The notes beneath the pieces were generated by a model that was not told where the DNA came from, made no database searches, and was given only the letters and a program-made list of their open reading frames with translations. The position numbers and the translations under genes were made by a program. Shown in pieces: positions 35,407 to 53,728 of a stretch of 64,000 nucleotides of DNA. Each line of letters opens with the position of its first letter. Position 1 is the first letter of the stretch. The stretch comes from an uncultured Polaribacter sp. (lineage in GTDB: Bacteria > Bacteroidota > Bacteroidia > Flavobacteriales > Flavobacteriaceae): positions 1,914,199-1,978,198 of the forward strand of contig OX044355.1 in assembly GCA_943846595.1 (NCBI GenBank), read 5' to 3'.

Positions 35407-35862
35407 CTATAATTTATTTAATTTTGGTTTTTTAAAATACTTAAAAGGAACAAACAGCATCCCAAAACATTGACTATCTGTTTTACCCATATTTTTGTGA
35501 TGAATTTTATGCGCTTTACGTAAGCCTTTTAGATAGGAATTATCGGTGTTCTTAAACCATTTGAAACGTTGGTGAATTAGCACATCATGGACTAAAAAAT
35601 AAGCCAATCCGTAGCATAAAATTCCCAAACCAATAAAAAACAAATAGGTGTGTACTGTGTAGGTTCCGAAATAGAACAACGCAATACTTGGGATTGCAAA
35701 TACAACGAAGAAAGCATCATTTTTCTCAAAACCATTGTATTTAGGTTGGTGATGATCTTCATGTAAGAACCAGCCAAAACCATGCATTACATATTTGTGA
35801 GTGCACCATGTGACTCCTTCCATTGTTAAAAAAACACCTAAAGTAATTAATGCGTAAATCAT
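35407..35862 (-). CDS. crtZ: Beta-carotene hydroxylase
   Basis: CrtZ hydroxylates the beta-ionone rings to make zeaxanthin and related pigments. The 151-aa membrane protein belongs to the di-iron fatty-acid-hydroxylase superfamily. His clusters THKYVMHGFGWFLHEDHHQP, HDVLIHQRF and HKIHHKNMG are the iron ligands, with helices between them. Its ATG overlaps the crtB stop by one base (TAATG), so it is the last gene of crtI-crtB-crtZ. Lycopene cyclase is not in the window. Confidence 0.93.
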   Translation of the reverse strand: MIYALITLGVFLTMEGVTWCTHKYVMHGFGWFLHEDHHQPKYNGFEKNDAFFVVFAIPSIALFYFGTYTVHTYLFFIGLGILCYGLAYFLVHDVLIHQRFKWFKNTDNSYLKGLRKAHKIHHKNMGKTDSQCFGMLFVPFKYFKKPKLNKL

Positions 35863-36704
35863 TAGATAATATTCAATTTGTATTTTACGTAACTTCTTGC
35901 TAAAAGATTAATTTTCATTGGATCAGAAATACGAACCCTTGAATCCATAATTTTTTCTGATGGAATTTTATGCAATTTCTTGAGCAGCCTTCTATAATAT
36001 CTGTAGGCCATATAGACTCCAAATTTTGCTTCAGTAGGAAGGTTTAAAATTCCGTTTGAAAAAGCATATTCAAAATCAGCTTCGATTTCTTCGATAATTA
36101 AATCTTTTGAAGCAGCATCTAACTTTCCTAGATCAATATTTGGAAAATACGAACGATTCAATACTTCATAATCATCTTTTAAATCTCTTAAGAAATTTAC
36201 CTTTTGAAAGGCAGAACCTAAACGCATTGCAGCATCTTTAAGATCTTCATACATTTTGTCATCCCCATTTACAAAAACCTTCAAACACATCAAACCAACA
36301 ACATCAGCCGAGCCATAAATATATGCATCATACTCTTCTTTGGTTGTATATTCCGTTTTGTGCAAATCTGCTTTCATACTTTTCAAAAATGCTTGCACCA
36401 TTTCATCCGGGATATCATATCTAGTTACTGTTTTTTGAAAAGAGTTTAAAATAGGATTTAAACTGATTCCATGCGTTTTAGCAGCATAATAGTCTTTTTC
36501 AAAGTGAGCCATAAGGTCCACTTTATTATACTCATGAAAAGTATCTACGATCTCATCAGCAAAACGAACAAAACCATAGATGTTATAAATATCAGCCCTT
36601 ATTTTTGGTGACAACATATTTACCGCCAAGGAAAATGAAGTGCTATACTTTTGTGTTACTAATTTACTACACCCGTCGGAAACATCATCAAATAAATCTT
36701 TCAT
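35862..36704 (-). CDS. crtB: Phytoene synthase
   Basis: CrtB joins two geranylgeranyl diphosphates into phytoene. The 280-aa protein has the first aspartate-rich site in RFADEIVDTF and the second in NFLRDLKDDYEVLNRSYFP, plus YIYGSADVVGLMCLKVF. The start follows the crtI stop after one base. Squalene synthase family members are similar, but the crtI and crtZ neighbours settle the role. Confidence 0.95.
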   Translation of the reverse strand: MKDLFDDVSDGCSKLVTQKYSTSFSLAVNMLSPKIRADIYNIYGFVRFADEIVDTFHEYNKVDLMAHFEKDYYAAKTHGISLNPILNSFQKTVTRYDIPDEMVQAFLKSMKADLHKTEYTTKEEYDAYIYGSADVVGLMCLKVFVNGDDKMYEDLKDAAMRLGSAFQKVNFLRDLKDDYEVLNRSYFPNIDLGKLDAASKDLIIEEIEADFEYAFSNGILNLPTEAKFGVYMAYRYYRRLLKKLHKIPSEKIMDSRVRISDPMKINLLARSYVKYKLNII

Positions 36705-36705
36705 A

Positions 36706-38172
36706 TTACGACTGTTTTTTTATAATTAATTCTGAAGCTAATTTTCCTGAAATTAATGCAGGTGGCACTCCTGGACCAGGAACAGTTAATTGTCCCGTAA
36801 AATACAAATTCCCCACTTTACTACTTTTAATATTGGGTCTTAAAAAGGCAGTTTGCATCAATGTGTTTGCCATACCATATGCATTTCCTTTGTAAGAATT
36901 ATAGGCTTCTTTAAAGTCATTTACACAAAATGATCTTTTAAAGAGTACACTGTTTCTGACTTCTTGATGCGTCAAATTTTCGAAACGGTCCATTATTTTC
37001 TCAAAATACTGTTCTCTTAAAGCTTCAGTATCTTCGATGCCTGGAGCCAATGGGATTAGAAAAAAACCTGCTTCTTTTCCTTCTGGTGCTGAAGTAGGAT
37101 CGGTCATCGATGTAAAGTTCGCATAAAACAACGGATCTGTTGGCCATTTTGGATGGTCATAAATTTCAGCAGCATGAGCATCAAAATCAGTATCAAAAAA
37201 GAGCGTATGATGGCTCGCATTTTTTATTTTTTTATCAAAACCAACATAGAAAAGTAATGACGAAGGTGCAAAGGTTTTTTTGTCCCAGTATTTTTCTGAA
37301 TACTGTCTCACATTTTCATCTAGTAAGGTTTCTGTATGGTGATAATCAGCACCACTTAAAACTAAATCTGCTTCAATTTTCTCACCATTAAGCAACAAAC
37401 CATTTACATTTTTGTTTGCATCAGTGAAAATTTTAGAAACCGTTGCATTGGTTTTGAATTGAACACCCAAGGTTGCTGCTAATGCAACCATCCCTTCCAC
37501 TACTTTGTACATTCCACCTCTTGGATGCCAGGTTCCCAATCCAAAATCTGCATAATTCATGAAATTATAAAATGCTGGAGTATTGTCAGGCTTTGCCCCT
37601 AAAAACAAAACAGGAAATTCTAAAATCTGAATTAATTTTGAGCTCTTTATATTTTTTCTTACTTGCTTTCTAATTGTTGAAAAAAACTGAGTAACTCTAG
37701 AAATTGTCGTGGTATTTACCAACTCTAATGGAGAAATTCCAGGTTTGTAAACCAAATCTTTAATGGCCGTATCATAATTTGCTTTTGCAGAATCTAAAAA
37801 TGTTTTTAAATGCTTGGCACTTCCAGTTTCTTCTTTTTCAAATAAATCATAAATTTCATCCAATTTACTTGCTATTTTCACAGAAGAATTATCACCGAAA
37901 TACACTTCGTAACCTGGAGACAATTTGTCTAGAGTATAGTAATCTGAAGGTTTTTTACCAAAATCTGCAAAAAAACGTTCAAATACATCTGGCATCCAAT
38001 ACCAAGAGGGTCCTAAATCGAAGGTAAACCCTTCTTTTTTGTATTGTCTCGCACGCCCACCCAAAGTGTCGTTTTTTTCTAAAACAGTAACGTCAAAGCC
38101 TGCCTTGGCTAAGTAACAAGAAGCAGATAGTGACGAGAATCCAGAGCCTATAATATAAACTTGTTTTTTCAT
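36706..38172 (-). CDS. crtI: Phytoene desaturase
   Basis: CrtI introduces the double bonds that convert phytoene to lycopene. The 488-aa protein starts with the FAD-binding KQVYIIGSGFSSLSASCYLAKAGFDVTVLEKND, then DLGPSWYWMPDVFERFF, and ends with the FAD-ribityl segment GNLYFTGQLTVPGPGVPPALISGKLASELI. It is the first gene of the carotenoid operon, with a TATATTTG promoter at 38228-38235 and the CarH-like regulator 91 bases upstream on the same strand. Confidence 0.96.
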   Translation of the reverse strand: MKKQVYIIGSGFSSLSASCYLAKAGFDVTVLEKNDTLGGRARQYKKEGFTFDLGPSWYWMPDVFERFFADFGKKPSDYYTLDKLSPGYEVYFGDNSSVKIASKLDEIYDLFEKEETGSAKHLKTFLDSAKANYDTAIKDLVYKPGISPLELVNTTTISRVTQFFSTIRKQVRKNIKSSKLIQILEFPVLFLGAKPDNTPAFYNFMNYADFGLGTWHPRGGMYKVVEGMVALAATLGVQFKTNATVSKIFTDANKNVNGLLLNGEKIEADLVLSGADYHHTETLLDENVRQYSEKYWDKKTFAPSSLLFYVGFDKKIKNASHHTLFFDTDFDAHAAEIYDHPKWPTDPLFYANFTSMTDPTSAPEGKEAGFFLIPLAPGIEDTEALREQYFEKIMDRFENLTHQEVRNSVLFKRSFCVNDFKEAYNSYKGNAYGMANTLMQTAFLRPNIKSSKVGNLYFTGQLTVPGPGVPPALISGKLASELIIKKQS

Positions 38173-38183
38173 TCATTGATTTT

Positions 38184-38235
38184 TTCAACAAATAATAGCT
38201 ATTTGAAGAAGAGGGTTCGTTGTTCAACAAATATA
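38184..38235 (-). promoter_or_regulatory. crtI promoter region with repeated motif
   Basis: The minus strand carries TATATTTG at 38228-38235, a good -7 element, giving a leader of about 50 nt before crtI. TTCAACAAATA (plus strand) occurs twice, at 38184-38194 and 38223-38233, 39 bases apart; the second copy overlaps the -7 element and an 11-base near-palindrome TTGTT-C-AACAA (38220-38230). These are candidate binding sites for the regulator. Confidence 0.5.
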
Positions 38236-38263: not shown

Positions 38264-39157
38264 TTACAACACTTTTAATAAATCTTTTATAGAGTCATAT
38301 AAAGTAATCTTCGATTTAAAATCAGCAGTCTGTACTACTTTCGTTTTTTCACCAATTGCAATAAAATGATGCTTAGAATCTTTTAAAATAGTATCTATTT
38401 CATTGAAATAACCTGTGATATTATCATCATAGGGCTGTATTGTAAGTGAAGTGACGAACGTAATTTTTCGATCACTTTTGAAAAAATAACTCAAATTATT
38501 TAAAGGCAGACTCTGTCCTAAATAAATCGTATGACTTCCTCTTAAAACAAGTTCATAGTTTAAATACAATAAGCCCAATTCATGAATTTCATTTTCTGGT
38601 AAAAACAACACATAGGTATTCTTAGAATCTAAAGAGATTGACTGTAACTTCTCTGTATTTATTTGTATTTTTTGCGCAATCAAATTGGAGATAAAATGCT
38701 CGTGTGCAGGAAGTAACGTTTCTGTTTGCCAAAGCAATCCGACTTGTTCTAAAAAAGGGATAAACACCTCTTTAAAAACATCTCTAAAGGTTATTTTGTG
38801 TAGTAATTTGTTGTAGGTTTCATTAAATAAAATTTTATCAAATTGAAACATTGCCAATTTCAATGAATTAATTGCTTCATCATTGATCGCAACTTCAAAG
38901 GCAAGAGCTCTCGCATTTTGAATAATCTCCGCTTCGGACATCTCCGCAATTTTCGAAATTTTGAAACTATTTTTATTCAGCAAAGAAATATTTAACAGCT
39001 TGGTTAAATTTTGATTGGAGTAAGAACGAATATTTGTGTCTGTTCTTTTGGGCTGGAGTAAATTGTATCTTTTTTCCCAAATTCGGATCGTATGCGCTTT
39101 GATTCCAGAGATATTTTGTAAATCTCTTATCGTAAAATCTTGCTTAATATTATTCAC
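38264..39157 (-). CDS. MerR-family regulator with cobalamin-binding-like domain (CarH/LitR type)
   Basis: The 297-aa cytosolic regulator has a MerR helix-turn-helix (FTIRDLQNISGIKAHTIRIWEKRYNLLQP, residues 8-37), a helical bundle and a Rossmann domain. W143-x9-E153-H154 (LLWQTETLLPAHEHF) is the motif that cradles adenosylcobalamin in CarH, and E190-x-H192-x2-G195 (ENEIHELG) is the lower-ligand motif. In Thermus CarH the residue after the Trp is His132, which forms the light adduct; here it is Gln144. It sits upstream of crtI on the same strand and is divergent from an ECF sigma gene, so control of carotenoid genes by light or B12 is likely. Confidence 0.88.
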   Translation of the reverse strand: MNNIKQDFTIRDLQNISGIKAHTIRIWEKRYNLLQPKRTDTNIRSYSNQNLTKLLNISLLNKNSFKISKIAEMSEAEIIQNARALAFEVAINDEAINSLKLAMFQFDKILFNETYNKLLHKITFRDVFKEVFIPFLEQVGLLWQTETLLPAHEHFISNLIAQKIQINTEKLQSISLDSKNTYVLFLPENEIHELGLLYLNYELVLRGSHTIYLGQSLPLNNLSYFFKSDRKITFVTSLTIQPYDDNITGYFNEIDTILKDSKHHFIAIGEKTKVVQTADFKSKITLYDSIKDLLKVL

Positions 39158-39179
39158 ACTAATCTTTTTGGTTGCAGAA

Positions 39180-39187
39180 CAAAGATA
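39180..39187 (-). promoter_or_regulatory. Candidate -7 promoter of the MerR-like regulator
   Basis: The minus strand reads TATCTTTG, a TAnnTTTG match, 23 bases before the regulator ATG at 39157. Confidence 0.55.
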
Positions 39188-39207
39188 CTTGTTTTTAATA
39201 AAAAAGG

Positions 39208-39226
39208 AAGTTTTGTTTCAAAACTT
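39208..39226. promoter_or_regulatory. Candidate operator between the regulator and the ECF sigma gene
   Basis: AAGTTTTG-TTT-CAAAACTT is a perfect 8-bp inverted repeat with a 3-base spacer, in the 117-base divergent region. A TGTACA palindrome lies at 39237-39242, close to the sigma-factor start. Autoregulation and control of the sigma gene by the CarH-like protein are plausible. Confidence 0.45.
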
Positions 39227-39274
39227 GTAACTTTTTGTACATTTTTGTGACTTATAATAAAATCAATTACAAGA

Positions 39275-39769
39275 GTGCTGAAAGATTTAGAAGCTAAATT
39301 TTTATCGGACTTTGAAAAAAATCAGAATATCGTTCATAAAATTTGTAGAATGTACACTACAAATAGAGAGGCGCATAATGATTTGTTTCAAGAAGTGACT
39401 ATTCAACTTTGGAAAAACTATGAAAAGTTTCGAGGCGAAGCAAAGTTTAGTACCTGGATGTATCGAGTTGCCTTAAATACTGCAATTTCGCTATATAGAA
39501 AATCGACTAGACAGTTAAAAACAAAGGATATTAGTGCTTTTGAATATAAAATTAAAGCGGTTGATTATGATGATACAGAAGAGTTACAATTAAAAGCACT
39601 ATATAATGCAATTCAACAATTAAATGATATTGAAAAAGCATTAATATTTTTGTATTTAGAAGACAAACCCTACAAAGAAATATCGGAGACATTAGGGATT
39701 TCGAATGGAAATGCAAGAGTCAAAATGAACAGAGCTAAGGAAAAACTTAAAAATATATTAAACCCATAA
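39275..39769 (+). CDS. ECF sigma factor
   Basis: The 164-aa protein begins at GTG 39275 and carries region 2 (DLFQEVTIQLWKNYEKFRGEAKFSTWMYRVALNTAI, residues 36-72) and region 4 (FLYLEDKPYKEISETLGISNGNARVKMNRAKEKLK), with no extra C-terminal domain. It is followed eight bases later by a four-helix membrane protein that could hold it at the membrane. Its position opposite the CarH-like regulator resembles photo-oxidative stress circuits in which a light sensor switches on a sigma factor, but this is inference. Confidence 0.9.
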   Translation: MLKDLEAKFLSDFEKNQNIVHKICRMYTTNREAHNDLFQEVTIQLWKNYEKFRGEAKFSTWMYRVALNTAISLYRKSTRQLKTKDISAFEYKIKAVDYDDTEELQLKALYNAIQQLNDIEKALIFLYLEDKPYKEISETLGISNGNARVKMNRAKEKLKNILNP

Positions 39770-39777
39770 GATAACCC

Positions 39778-40392
39778 ATGGATTTATTAGACAATTATAA
39801 AAAAGCTTGGGACAATCAGCCCGAAGAAATGAAGAAAATTTCTGCCTTAGAAATTTATAAAATGACACAGGCAAAATCATCATCAATTATAAAATGGATT
39901 TTTGTGATTGGACTCTTAGAGTTTGCTTTTATGATTCTTTCTACCTTTATTTTTGATGTTTCTAATGACGAAAAAATCATGATGGCTATGGGCGTCTATG
40001 AGTTGGTTCAAATATCACAATACTTGACCATTCCCGTACTCTTTTATTTCCTCTTCTTGTTTTATAAAAATTATAAAAACATTTCGAGTATCGACAATAC
40101 CAAGAAATTGATGACCAAAATCAGAAAAACAAGAAGAACGGTGAGAAATTATGTCATCTTTAACCTACTTTACATTGTTTATATTGCTGCAATAATGACT
40201 TTTGGAATGGTCGAGACTCCACAAGGAAGTTTTCAAAATACTCCCGGATGGATTATTGTTTTAATCATGATGCTTGTCACCGTAATTATGTTATTACTCT
40301 TCTGGGGCTTCTATCAGCTCCTCTATGGAATTTTATTAAACAAATTAAATAGAAACTACATCGAATTGGCAAAATTGGATCAAAAAGAATGA
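39778..40392 (+). CDS. Four-helix membrane protein, possible anti-sigma partner
   Basis: The 204-aa protein has a cytosolic N-terminus ([29 protein letters not shown]) and four membrane segments (about 39-60, 83-100, 121-142, 160-185). No anti-sigma zinc motif is seen. Immediate cotranscription with the sigma gene makes an anti-sigma or accessory role possible, but the family is not known to me. Its last 13 bases overlap the threonine aldolase gene on the opposite strand. Confidence 0.7.
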
Positions 40393-52660: not shown

Positions 52661-53728
52661 ATGGATAAAAAAATATCTGCATTGACTGAAAATGAAGGGG
52701 TTTCTCTACCGGAAACCACCAACAATAGCGCTGCTCAAAAAATAAAATTGAGCAGGGCTAAACAGCATTCGGTGGAAGCGTTTGTAAAGAATATTTTGGC
52801 AGGAGACATTCCTTTTTTAAGCCGTGCCATTACCTTGGTAGAAAGCACAACAGTAAAACATCAACAGAAAGCGAATGCTATTTTGGAGCATTGTTTGCCC
52901 TTTGCGAACAATTCTGTAAGAATTGGAATTACAGGAGTTCCTGGCGTTGGAAAAAGTACATTCATTGAAGCTTTTGGCAAACATTTAACTTCACAGGGGA
53001 GAAAAGTTGCGGTGTTGGCAGTAGACCCAAGTAGCGCGCTAAACAAAGGAAGCATTTTAGGCGATAAAACTCGCATGGAAGAATTGGTTACTGATAAAAA
53101 TGCATTTATCAGACCTTCTCCTTCTGGGGCTTCTTTGGGAGGAGTTGCTCAAAAAACTAGGGAAAGTATCATTCTTTGCGAAGCTGCTGGTTTTGATACC
53201 ATTATTATTGAAACGGTGGGTGTTGGACAGTCTGAAACAGTGGTACACTCGATGGTTGATTTCTTTTTATTATTGAAACTATCGGGGGCTGGTGATGAAT
53301 TGCAGGGAATGAAACGGGGCATTATTGAAATGGCGGATGCAATTGTGATTCACAAAGCGGATGGAGATAATATTCAACGAGCGAAGATGGCCAAAGTAGC
53401 GTTTACAAACGCCTTGCATTTATATCCTTTGAAGGAAAGCAAATGGCAGCCAAAGGTAGTCACAGCAAGTGCTTTAGAAAATCATGGAATTGCTGAAATT
53501 GAACTTTTAATTTCTGAATACATCCAACTAACAAAACAGAATACTTCTTTTGAAAATAAAAGAAATGCGCAAAATAAATTTTGGCTTTTGTCTACAATTG
53601 AACAGCAACTAAAAACGAATTTTTACCAAAATCCGTTGATTAAAGCGGCTATGTCTGAAGAAATTCTTGCTTTAGAGAATGGAAAAACGACGCCTTTTAA
53701 TGCTGCCAAAAGACTTTTGGATATTTAA
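52661..53728 (+). CDS. meaB: Methylmalonyl-CoA mutase-associated GTPase MeaB
   Basis: MeaB/ArgK is a G3E-type P-loop GTPase that protects and reloads the B12-dependent methylmalonyl-CoA mutase. The 355-aa protein has Walker A GITGVPGVGKSTFIEAF, VLAVDPSSALNKGSILGDKTRM, PSPSGASLGGVAQKTRE, IIETVGVGQSE and DAIVIHKADGDN. It implies that adenosylcobalamin enzymes operate in this organism, which fits a B12-dependent regulator elsewhere in the window. It stands alone, without mutase genes. Confidence 0.95.
   Translation: MDKKISALTENEGVSLPETTNNSAAQKIKLSRAKQHSVEAFVKNILAGDIPFLSRAITLVESTTVKHQQKANAILEHCLPFANNSVRIGITGVPGVGKSTFIEAFGKHLTSQGRKVAVLAVDPSSALNKGSILGDKTRMEELVTDKNAFIRPSPSGASLGGVAQKTRESIILCEAAGFDTIIIETVGVGQSETVVHSMVDFFLLLKLSGAGDELQGMKRGIIEMADAIVIHKADGDNIQRAKMAKVAFTNALHLYPLKESKWQPKVVTASALENHGIAEIELLISEYIQLTKQNTSFENKRNAQNKFWLLSTIEQQLKTNFYQNPLIKAAMSEEILALENGKTTPFNAAKRLLDI

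What the first reader, a model, noticed from the sequence alone, without database searches (positions are those of the whole stretch)
38264..39157. CarH-type photoreceptor motif with Gln in place of the light-adduct His
W143-x9-E153-H154 and E190-x-H192-x2-G195 are exact CarH motifs, but the residue following the Trp is Gln144, where Thermus CarH has the His that replaces the adenosyl group after light. The gene sits next to crtI-crtB-crtZ and an ECF sigma factor. MeaB in the window shows that adenosylcobalamin is probably used by the cell.
Basis: partly seen in the sequence, partly recalled or inferred. Interest (0 to 1): 0.62.

Follow-up and report, generated by a model that had tools for sequence, protein, structure and literature searches.

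The report
B12-type light repressor of carotenoid genes
The gene encodes a CarH-like, vitamin-B12-binding repressor at the head of a carotenoid operon in a Polaribacter-type marine bacterium, and the glutamine that was flagged is the usual residue among its relatives and is already known from another light-sensing B12 protein.

Summary
In detail: ORF 38264-39157 (-) is a 297-aa MerR/B12-binding protein with W143-x9-E153-H154 and E190-x-H192-x2-G195, and Q144 aligns with His132 of Thermus CarH.

The implied oddity is ordinary. Among 226 distinct close orthologs examined, residue 144 is Gln in 209, His in 15, Leu in 2; W143, E153, E190 and H192 are in all 226. Published light-responsive B12 proteins also lack this His: CtMerR has Arg, SasPcob has Gln.

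New here: in Flavobacteriaceae, carH usually precedes crtI-crtB-crtZ. A TTTGTTWAAC repeat overlaps the promoter box of carH and crtI in most orthologs examined, though in the window only at crtI. His appears repeatedly inside Gln clades.

Best reading: an AdoCbl-dependent dark repressor of its operon, released by light without the bis-His adduct. It departs from textbook CarH in the GG motif, the dimer salt bridge and probably the operator, so it is filed as a variant. B12 binding and light response are inferred, not shown. Interest moderate to low.

The parts
38264..39157 (-). carH-like gene, 297 aa, GTG start
   Evidence: Pfam MerR_1 and B12-binding_2 over cut-off
38933..39136 (-). MerR DNA-binding domain, residues 8-75, with RIWEKRY in the recognition region
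   Evidence: Pfam MerR_1 52.2 bits; R25, W27, E28, R30 in 226 of 226 orthologs
38663..38872 (-). four-helix cap of the cobalamin domain, residues 96-165
   Evidence: Pfam B12-binding_2 39.2 bits; AF2 model and fold matches
38267..38617 (-). Rossmann-like half of the cobalamin domain, residues 181-297
   Evidence: AF2 model and fold matches; Pfam B12-binding PF02310 not detected in this protein
38729..38731 (-). codon of W143 (TtCarH W131)
   Evidence: 226 of 226
38726..38728 (-). codon of Q144 (CAA; TtCarH H132)
   Evidence: Gln 209, His 15, Leu 2 of 226
38696..38704 (-). codons of H152-E153-H154 (TtCarH E140-E141-H142)
   Evidence: His152 204, Glu153 226, His154 218 of 226
38573..38590 (-). 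E190-x-H192-x2-G195, expected lower cobalt ligand
   Evidence: H192 226 of 226
38222..38235 (-). TATATTTGTTGAAC, -7-type promoter box of crtI merged with the proposed operator repeat
   Evidence: only match in the window, but 18 of 100 shuffles also have at least one
39180..39187 (-). TATCTTTG, -7-type box of the carH promoter (here without a good operator repeat)
   Evidence: sequence; box present upstream of 210 of 226 orthologs
36706..38172 (-). crtI, proposed target
   Evidence: NCBIfam CrtID NF058655 736.6 bits over cut-off 640
35862..36704 (-). crtB, proposed target
   Evidence: Pfam SQS_PSY 155.7 bits
35407..35862 (-). crtZ-like hydroxylase, proposed target
   Evidence: Pfam FA_hydroxylase 44.8 bits; the name CrtZ rests on operon position and was not tested separately

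Best explanation
A CarH-type adenosylcobalamin repressor. In the dark, AdoCbl, held by H192 below and capped by W143/E153/H154 above, lets the protein oligomerise and bind TTTGTTWAAC-type repeats that overlap the promoter boxes of crtI and, in most relatives, of carH itself, so carH-crtI-crtB-crtZ is kept low. Blue/green light breaks the Co-C bond and the adenosyl group leaves. Because residue 144 is Gln, cobalt then takes water or hydroxide and not a second His, as in SasPcob, CtMerR and TtCarH H132A. Loss of the adenosyl group alone weakens the oligomer, the promoter opens and carotenoid is made. Shown here: domains, fold, conserved ligands, conserved operon order, conserved promoter repeat, AdoCbl-related genes in the genome. 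Inferred: AdoCbl binding, that the repeat is the operator, repression, light release, and the aquo/hydroxo light state.
For: Ligand and cap residues conserved. Fold matches TtCarH, CtMerR and SasPcob cobalamin domains at Z 18.7-19.4, above MetH 1bmt 16.2. crtI downstream on the same strand in 38 of 39 loci and 18 of 20 further family loci. TANNTTTGTTNA upstream of carH in 184 of 226, against a shuffle mean of 2.55 and 53 of 550 other ORFs, most of these 53 being crtI. Same motif in 76 of 93 carH-crtI gaps of at least 40 bp. Adenosyltransferase, mutase and MeaB in the genome. carH and the adenosyltransferase co-occur over 199 family genomes: 157 both, 4 carH only, 27 transferase only, 11 neither, p 2.5e-6. 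CtMerR, with Arg at the site, goes from tetramer to monomer in light (PMC11796333 section 10).
Against: No spectrum, binding or expression data. Not met: GG motif and x22-27 spacing, salt bridge pair (I191/S216), G174 (N189), CarH NCBIfam cut-off (65 of 400 bits). TtCarH H132A stayed mostly tetrameric after light in one study (PMC10442372), so Gln might impair release. CtMerR crystals lit without oxygen changed without monomerising. SasPcob without biliverdin is a monomer in dark and light. The window's own carH promoter lacks the repeat, and the pattern is not enriched genome-wide: 8 matches against 7 for the reversed control. Two near-complete genomes (G008, G064) have carH but no Cob_adeno_trans match.
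Confidence: 0.7

Rival explanations
1. B12-status sensor: it represses crt genes when AdoCbl is plentiful and releases them when B12 is scarce; light matters little in the cell.
For: Gln144 removes the bis-His light state; TtCarH H132A mostly keeps its tetramer after light (PMC10442372 passages). carH tracks the adenosyltransferase across genomes.
Against: CtMerR (Arg) still goes from tetramer to monomer in light. Target genes are carotenoid genes, the usual light-protection output. The genome also has photolyase-family and rhodopsin genes, so the cell lives in light.
Confidence: 0.15
2. A different His (H152 or H154) takes over as upper ligand, so the light state is still bis-His.
For: H152 is in 204 of 226 close orthologs where TtCarH has Glu140; H154 is in 218.
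Against: H152 is Asn in 14 and Gln in 6 of the same set, all of these with Gln144, and 13 of 15 His144 proteins keep H152, so there is no sign of exchange; in the 37 more distant proteins Leu/Gln is the commonest 144/152 pair. H154 exists in TtCarH too (H142) and is not its light ligand. Geometry could not be measured: no coordinates are handed out.
Confidence: 0.1
3. B12-independent repressor like CarA of Myxococcus, controlled by another partner such as the ECF sigma factor next door.
For: Divergent nucleotide-tail motif without GG; sigma factor beside carH in 31 of 39 loci; CarA is the precedent (PMC8156234).
Against: CarA lacks the Trp of Wx9EH (PMC9304148 passages), whereas W143 and H192 are in 226 of 226 here. 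The sigma factor is absent from the carH loci of 20 further family members.
Confidence: 0.05

Closest known systems
CarH / class I LitR of Thermus thermophilus (PDB 5C8D, 5C8E, 5C8F, 8C31-8C37)
   Same: MerR DNA-binding domain plus AdoCbl domain; Wx9EH cap; lower-ligand His; beside carotenoid genes; same fold
   Different: Gln for His132; Asn for Gly174; Ile/Ser for the Arg176-Asp201 pair; no GG; about 20% identity; proposed operator TTTGTTWAAC repeats 21 bp apart and not three 11-bp repeats nAnnTnnACAn
CtMerR of Chloracidobacterium thermophilum (PDB 8JBS, 8JBT)
   Same: MerR-type B12 photoreceptor without His at the site (Arg), tetramer to monomer in light, aquo/hydroxocobalamin (PMC11796333); fold Z 19.2
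   Different: 16% identity over the matched domain; Arg and not Gln; no carotenoid link read for it
Photocobilin SasPcob of Saccharothrix syringae (PDB 8J2W, 8J2X)
   Same: Gln at the equivalent site; AdoCbl photolysis to water/hydroxide-ligated cobalamin without bis-His (PMC10979010 passages; PMC11796333 section 11); fold Z 18.7
   Different: Carries a biliverdin domain and no MerR domain; dimer to monomer only with biliverdin bound
CarA of Myxococcus xanthus (PDB 2JML)
   Same: MerR-B12-domain repressor of carotenoid genes
   Different: Lacks the Trp of Wx9EH and acts without B12 (PMC8156234, PMC9304148); here the Trp is in 226 of 226

Membership tests
CarH (definition in PMC8156234 and PMC9304148) | MerR DNA-binding domain followed by a cobalamin domain | tested here: met
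   Pfam MerR_1 and B12-binding_2 over cut-off; fold
CarH (definition in PMC8156234 and PMC9304148) | intact Wx9EH | tested here: met
   W143, E153, H154; in relatives W and E 226 of 226, H 218 of 226
CarH (definition in PMC8156234 and PMC9304148) | D/ExHx2G/P then x41 then SxT/V | tested here: met
   E190-H192-G195, S237-x-T239; in relatives position 237 is Tyr in 113 and Ser in 91 of 226
CarH (definition in PMC8156234 and PMC9304148) | x22-27 then GG | tested here: not met
   single G269 after 29 residues, followed by Glu; position 270 is mostly Arg or Lys in relatives
CarH (NCBIfam NF052513) | score over the curated cut-off | tested here: not met
   65.4 bits against 400
CarH as in Thermus | His as upper ligand after light (His132) | tested here: not met
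   Q144; the literature treats this as variable
CarH as in Thermus | Arg176-Asp201 salt bridge at the dimer contact (residue numbers recalled) | tested here: not met
   I191 and S216
Light-responsive cobalamin domain (SignatureFinder: GxxW, EH, GxxH, GxxxP) | all four elements | tested here: not met
   GxxW, EH, GxxxP present; NxxH for GxxH; Gly there in 10 of 226 relatives
CarH | AdoCbl-dependent oligomer and DNA binding, reversed by light | not testable with these tools
   needs protein
CarA | loss of the Trp of Wx9EH | tested here: not met
   W143 present; 226 of 226 relatives

The most novel reading that the evidence does not exclude
The carotenoid-linked CarH-type repressors of Flavobacteriaceae, and probably of other Bacteroidota, switch by loss of the adenosyl group alone, without the bis-His adduct that ends the Thermus cycle, and through a different dimer contact and operator. 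His132 would then be a refinement gained several times (11 changes of state among the close orthologs on the tree) and not the core of the B12 switch. Gln and His sister species of Polaribacter would be a natural experiment on what the adduct adds, for instance a longer-lived light state.
Probability: 0.4. Interest if true: 0.5.

Novelty: new variant of a known kind. Interest (0 to 1): 0.33.

Why it matters
It removes a false alarm: the Gln is normal here. It also points to a large set of marine bacteria whose carotenoid operon is probably under B12/light control but which strict CarH models and the published GxxH signature would pass over. The recurrent Gln/His change gives natural pairs for the disputed question whether the bis-His state is needed for disassembly (PMC10442372 against the earlier report that it cites). 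The promoter-embedded repeat gives a ready target for a binding test.

Tried and rejected
Ten-bp repeats TTGTAACTTT/TTGTACATTT/TTGTGACTTA at about 39224-39258, seen by eye, were first taken for the operator. In most Polaribacter relatives printed only the TGTTACA part is kept, and the block faces the sigma-factor gene, so it is more likely that gene's promoter; dropped.

A wider regulon was sought with TANNTTTGTTNAAC in the own genome: 8 matches against 7 for the reversed control. Besides crtI, two sites stand within 20 bp of an ORF start read by script (a dUTPase-like and a small lipoprotein-like ORF, named by eye); not followed.

Exchange of His between sites 144 and 152 was tested on residue pairs and not supported.

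A 'blind spot' from missing Pfam PF02310 was considered: 15 of 118 members of A2 match at 1e-3, but TtCarH itself scores 23.8 bits, below that family's cut-off of 32.1, so the point was kept only for the GxxH signature.

Literature: searches on CarH/LitR/MerR with Bacteroidetes, Flavobacteri-, Polaribacter or Bacteroidota returned 1, 2, 1, 1 and 0 papers. From their listings, and from passages of one of them (PMC7064467), none is a study of a Bacteroidota CarH; this covers only the held open-licence library. Chryseobacterium lacus (PMC7064467, passages) has light-induced crt genes; its authors name no CarH gene and speculate that a hypothetical protein acts like CarA/LitR. Dokdonia PRO95 (PMC3587595, passages) showed no light/dark crt data in the passages seen.

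Sampling limits: the 226 are distinct ORFs of at least 320 bits out of 294 hits (273 distinct; 37 at 150-320 bits and 10 below 150 are counted apart). They come from loci that I fetched, which lean to top hits: of the 161 matched genomes, loci of about 111; of the 107; plus the 39 and loci. Twelve family genomes whose best match is weak (E between 1e-40 and 1e-52) were left out save G032 (L129, Gly at the site). The 320-bit line is a stand-in for the family: it lets in L102 (another family) and leaves out L159 (same family, His). Alignment A2 holds 118 of the 132 representatives chosen; I left out 14 divergent ones. The tree is a FastTree tree, so the number of changes is approximate, and the direction Gln to His is inferred.

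Full report
Observation. The ORF at 38264..39157 on the - strand codes for 297 residues from a GTG. Pfam finds MerR_1 (52.2 bits) and B12-binding_2 (39.2 bits), both over their cut-offs. An alignment that includes T. thermophilus HB8 CarH, read from the pTT27 record, pairs W131/H132/E140/E141/H142/H177 with W143/Q144/H152/E153/H154/H192; phmmer against PDB sequences agrees. The neighbours are as described: crtI, crtB and a CrtZ-like gene on the same strand, an ECF sigma factor divergent, MeaB at 52661-53728.

What it is. The AF2 model (118 aligned sequences, pLDDT 89.4, pTM 0.81) matches the TtCarH cobalamin domain (8c33 Z 19.4, rmsd 2.5, 190 residues), tied with TtCarH H132A structures (19.4), CtMerR (19.2) and SasPcob (18.7), above MetH 1bmt (16.2). 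Foldseek puts full-length TtCarH on DNA first (5c8e, E 4e-13). The genome is one contig of 2.3 Mb; the nearest named records are Polaribacter genomes and MAGs, the best at 95% protein identity (records very near the window's genome may be left out there).

Is Gln144 special? Orthologs were found in 161 of 199 family genomes, 107 of 116 genus genomes (84 of 84 of the good ones) and 78 of 345 phylum genomes. Of 226 distinct proteins of at least 320 bits, residue 144 is Gln in 209, His in 15, Leu in 2; W143, E153, E190, H192 are in all 226, H154 in 218 (Arg 7, Asn 1). In 37 of 150-320 bits the site is Leu 9, Gln 6, Ile 4, Met 4, His 2, Val 2, Arg 2, Gly 2, Thr 2, and Ser, Ala, Asp, Phe once each, with Trp in 35 and the lower His in 30. 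Outside the phylum, T. thermophilus and T. brockianus have His, one Caballeronia Arg, one Rhizobium Ala. On a FastTree tree of 263 proteins with column 144 masked, the Gln/His/other state changes 11 times among the close orthologs and 18 times overall, so His most likely arose several times from Gln, a one-base change (codons CAA 177, CAG 32, CAT 14, CAC 1).

What is known of the site. PMC10442372 (passages): TtCarH H132A binds AdoCbl and forms the dark tetramer normally; after light it holds hydroxylated Co(III) (352 nm against 359 nm) and mostly stays tetrameric, against an earlier report of disassembly that it cites. PMC11796333 (sections 9-12): the residue is Arg in CtMerR, Gln in SasPcob, Tyr in AbDPcob; all respond to green light. 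CtMerR goes from tetramer to monomer in solution, though its crystals lit without oxygen did not monomerise; SasPcob without biliverdin is a monomer throughout. PMC10979010 (passages): the SasPcob light state is a monomer with water/hydroxide on cobalt and lacks the large domain shift. PMC9304148 (passages): many CarH have His after the Trp. A missing His is therefore no evidence against light sensing.

Target. crtI lies downstream of carH on the same strand in 38 of the 39 loci (the 39th ends there), in 18 of 20 further family loci, and in 16 of 40 loci taken from the phylum search (L102-L141, mostly other families; flanks 4 kb or less). The sigma factor is beside carH in 31 of the 39, in none of the 20; in 7 of the 40 an ECF-like gene lies downstream on the same strand and in one it is upstream.

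Operator. The -7 box TAnnTTTG of this group (consensus recalled) occurs within 100 bp upstream of carH in 210 of 226, against 119 of 550 other ORFs in the same loci. TANNTTTGTTNA occurs in 184 of 226, against 53 of 550 and a shuffle mean of 2.55; TTTGTTNAA starts 25 bp before the start codon in 141 of the 160 that have it. Among upstreams with TAnnTTTG in ATG-started ORFs, TTNAA follows in 39 of 63 (carH), 37 of 44 (crtI), 8 of 63 (unannotated others) and 1 of 5 (threonine aldolase-like, crtZ and sigma genes together). Of 124 orthologs with crtI visible downstream on the same strand, 93 have a gap of at least 40 bp; 76 of these 93 hold TANNTTTGTTNA. TANNTTTGTTNAAC occurs within 110 bp after the carH stop in 132 of the 226, with a second TTGTTNA-like copy 21 bp upstream in 103 of these 132. 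That copy falls where the -33 TTG box is expected, so part of the fixed spacing is promoter geometry. The complement, GTTAAACAAA, holds TnnACA, part of the published TtCarH repeat nAnnTnnACAn (PMC8156234 section 10). In the window the crtI site TATATTTGTTGAAC is at 38222-38235, the only match in 64 kb (0.20 expected; 18 of 100 shuffles have at least one). Against: the window's own carH promoter has only TATCTTTG, its copy at -21 is degenerate, and genome-wide the pattern is not enriched (8 against 7).

Cofactor. The genome has a Cob_adeno_trans adenosyltransferase (206.9 bits), methylmalonyl-CoA mutase, MeaB and a second B12-binding_2 protein, probably MetH, plus three FAD_binding_7 (photolyase/cryptochrome) genes and a rhodopsin. 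Over the same 199 family genomes carH and the adenosyltransferase co-occur: both 157, carH alone 4, transferase alone 27, neither 11 (p 2.5e-6); in the 165 good genomes 144/2/14/5 (p 2e-4) (cells tallied by hand). Shared ancestry and genome reduction could make part of this.

Differences from TtCarH. I191/S216 stand for R176/D201, S175 for G160, N189 for G174; G207 keeps G192; GG is absent. NCBIfam's CarH model scores 65 bits against a cut-off of 400. As a part of the published definition was tested and not met, I file it as a variant that works like CarH, not as CarH proper.

Mechanism and verdict. Most likely an AdoCbl-dependent dark repressor of carH-crtI-crtB-crtZ, released by light through loss of the adenosyl group, with a water/hydroxide light state (0.7). 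Rivals: B12-status sensing (0.15), another His as ligand (0.1), B12-independent CarA-like action (0.05). Light response and B12 binding were not tested. Interest 0.33: the flagged residue is ordinary, but the clade-wide state, its repeated change to His and the promoter repeat make an open mechanistic question easy to test.

Noticed in passing
38264-39157 and orthologs: The codon aligned to residue 1 of carH is TTG in 85 and GTG in 2 of 87 orthologs at least 60% identical to the window protein, but ATG in 102 of 128 others (11 of 226 not scored): a lineage-wide weak start codon.
   Followed up: partly
L066, L067, L068, L157, L158, L160: His154 of the otherwise fixed Wx9EH is Arg in 7 of 226 close orthologs, with W143, E153 and H192 kept. 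Effect on AdoCbl unknown.
   Followed up: no
39158-40392: ECF sigma factor with a membrane protein right after it, divergent from carH; a TGTTACA block upstream is kept in Polaribacter relatives and looks like the sigma gene's promoter. It recalls CarQ-CarR of Myxococcus (recalled), but is not kept in other family loci.
   Followed up: partly
L105, L107, L113, L116-L119: In some Bacteroidota outside the family an ECF-like sigma gene lies downstream of carH on the same strand, before crtI where crtI is in view.
   Followed up: no
L128, L131, L134, L136, L138, L108, L164: CarH-like proteins of other Bacteroidota that have lost the lower cobalt ligand His (7 of 37 at 150-320 bits), possibly B12-independent regulators.
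   Followed up: no
G008 and G064 (family genomes): Near-complete genomes with carH but without a Cob_adeno_trans match; other adenosyltransferase types were not searched.
   Followed up: no
own genome G000:C1:2158734-2171406 (L170-L172, L174, L176): Three photolyase/cryptochrome-family genes stand close to the methylmalonyl-CoA mutase genes.
   Followed up: no
G007, G014, G025, G028, G032, G038, G040, G066, G098, G106, G168, G184: Twelve family genomes whose best match to the window protein is much weaker (E 1e-40 to 1e-52); the one fetched (L129) has Gly at the site and crtI about 2 kb away on the other strand.
   Followed up: partly
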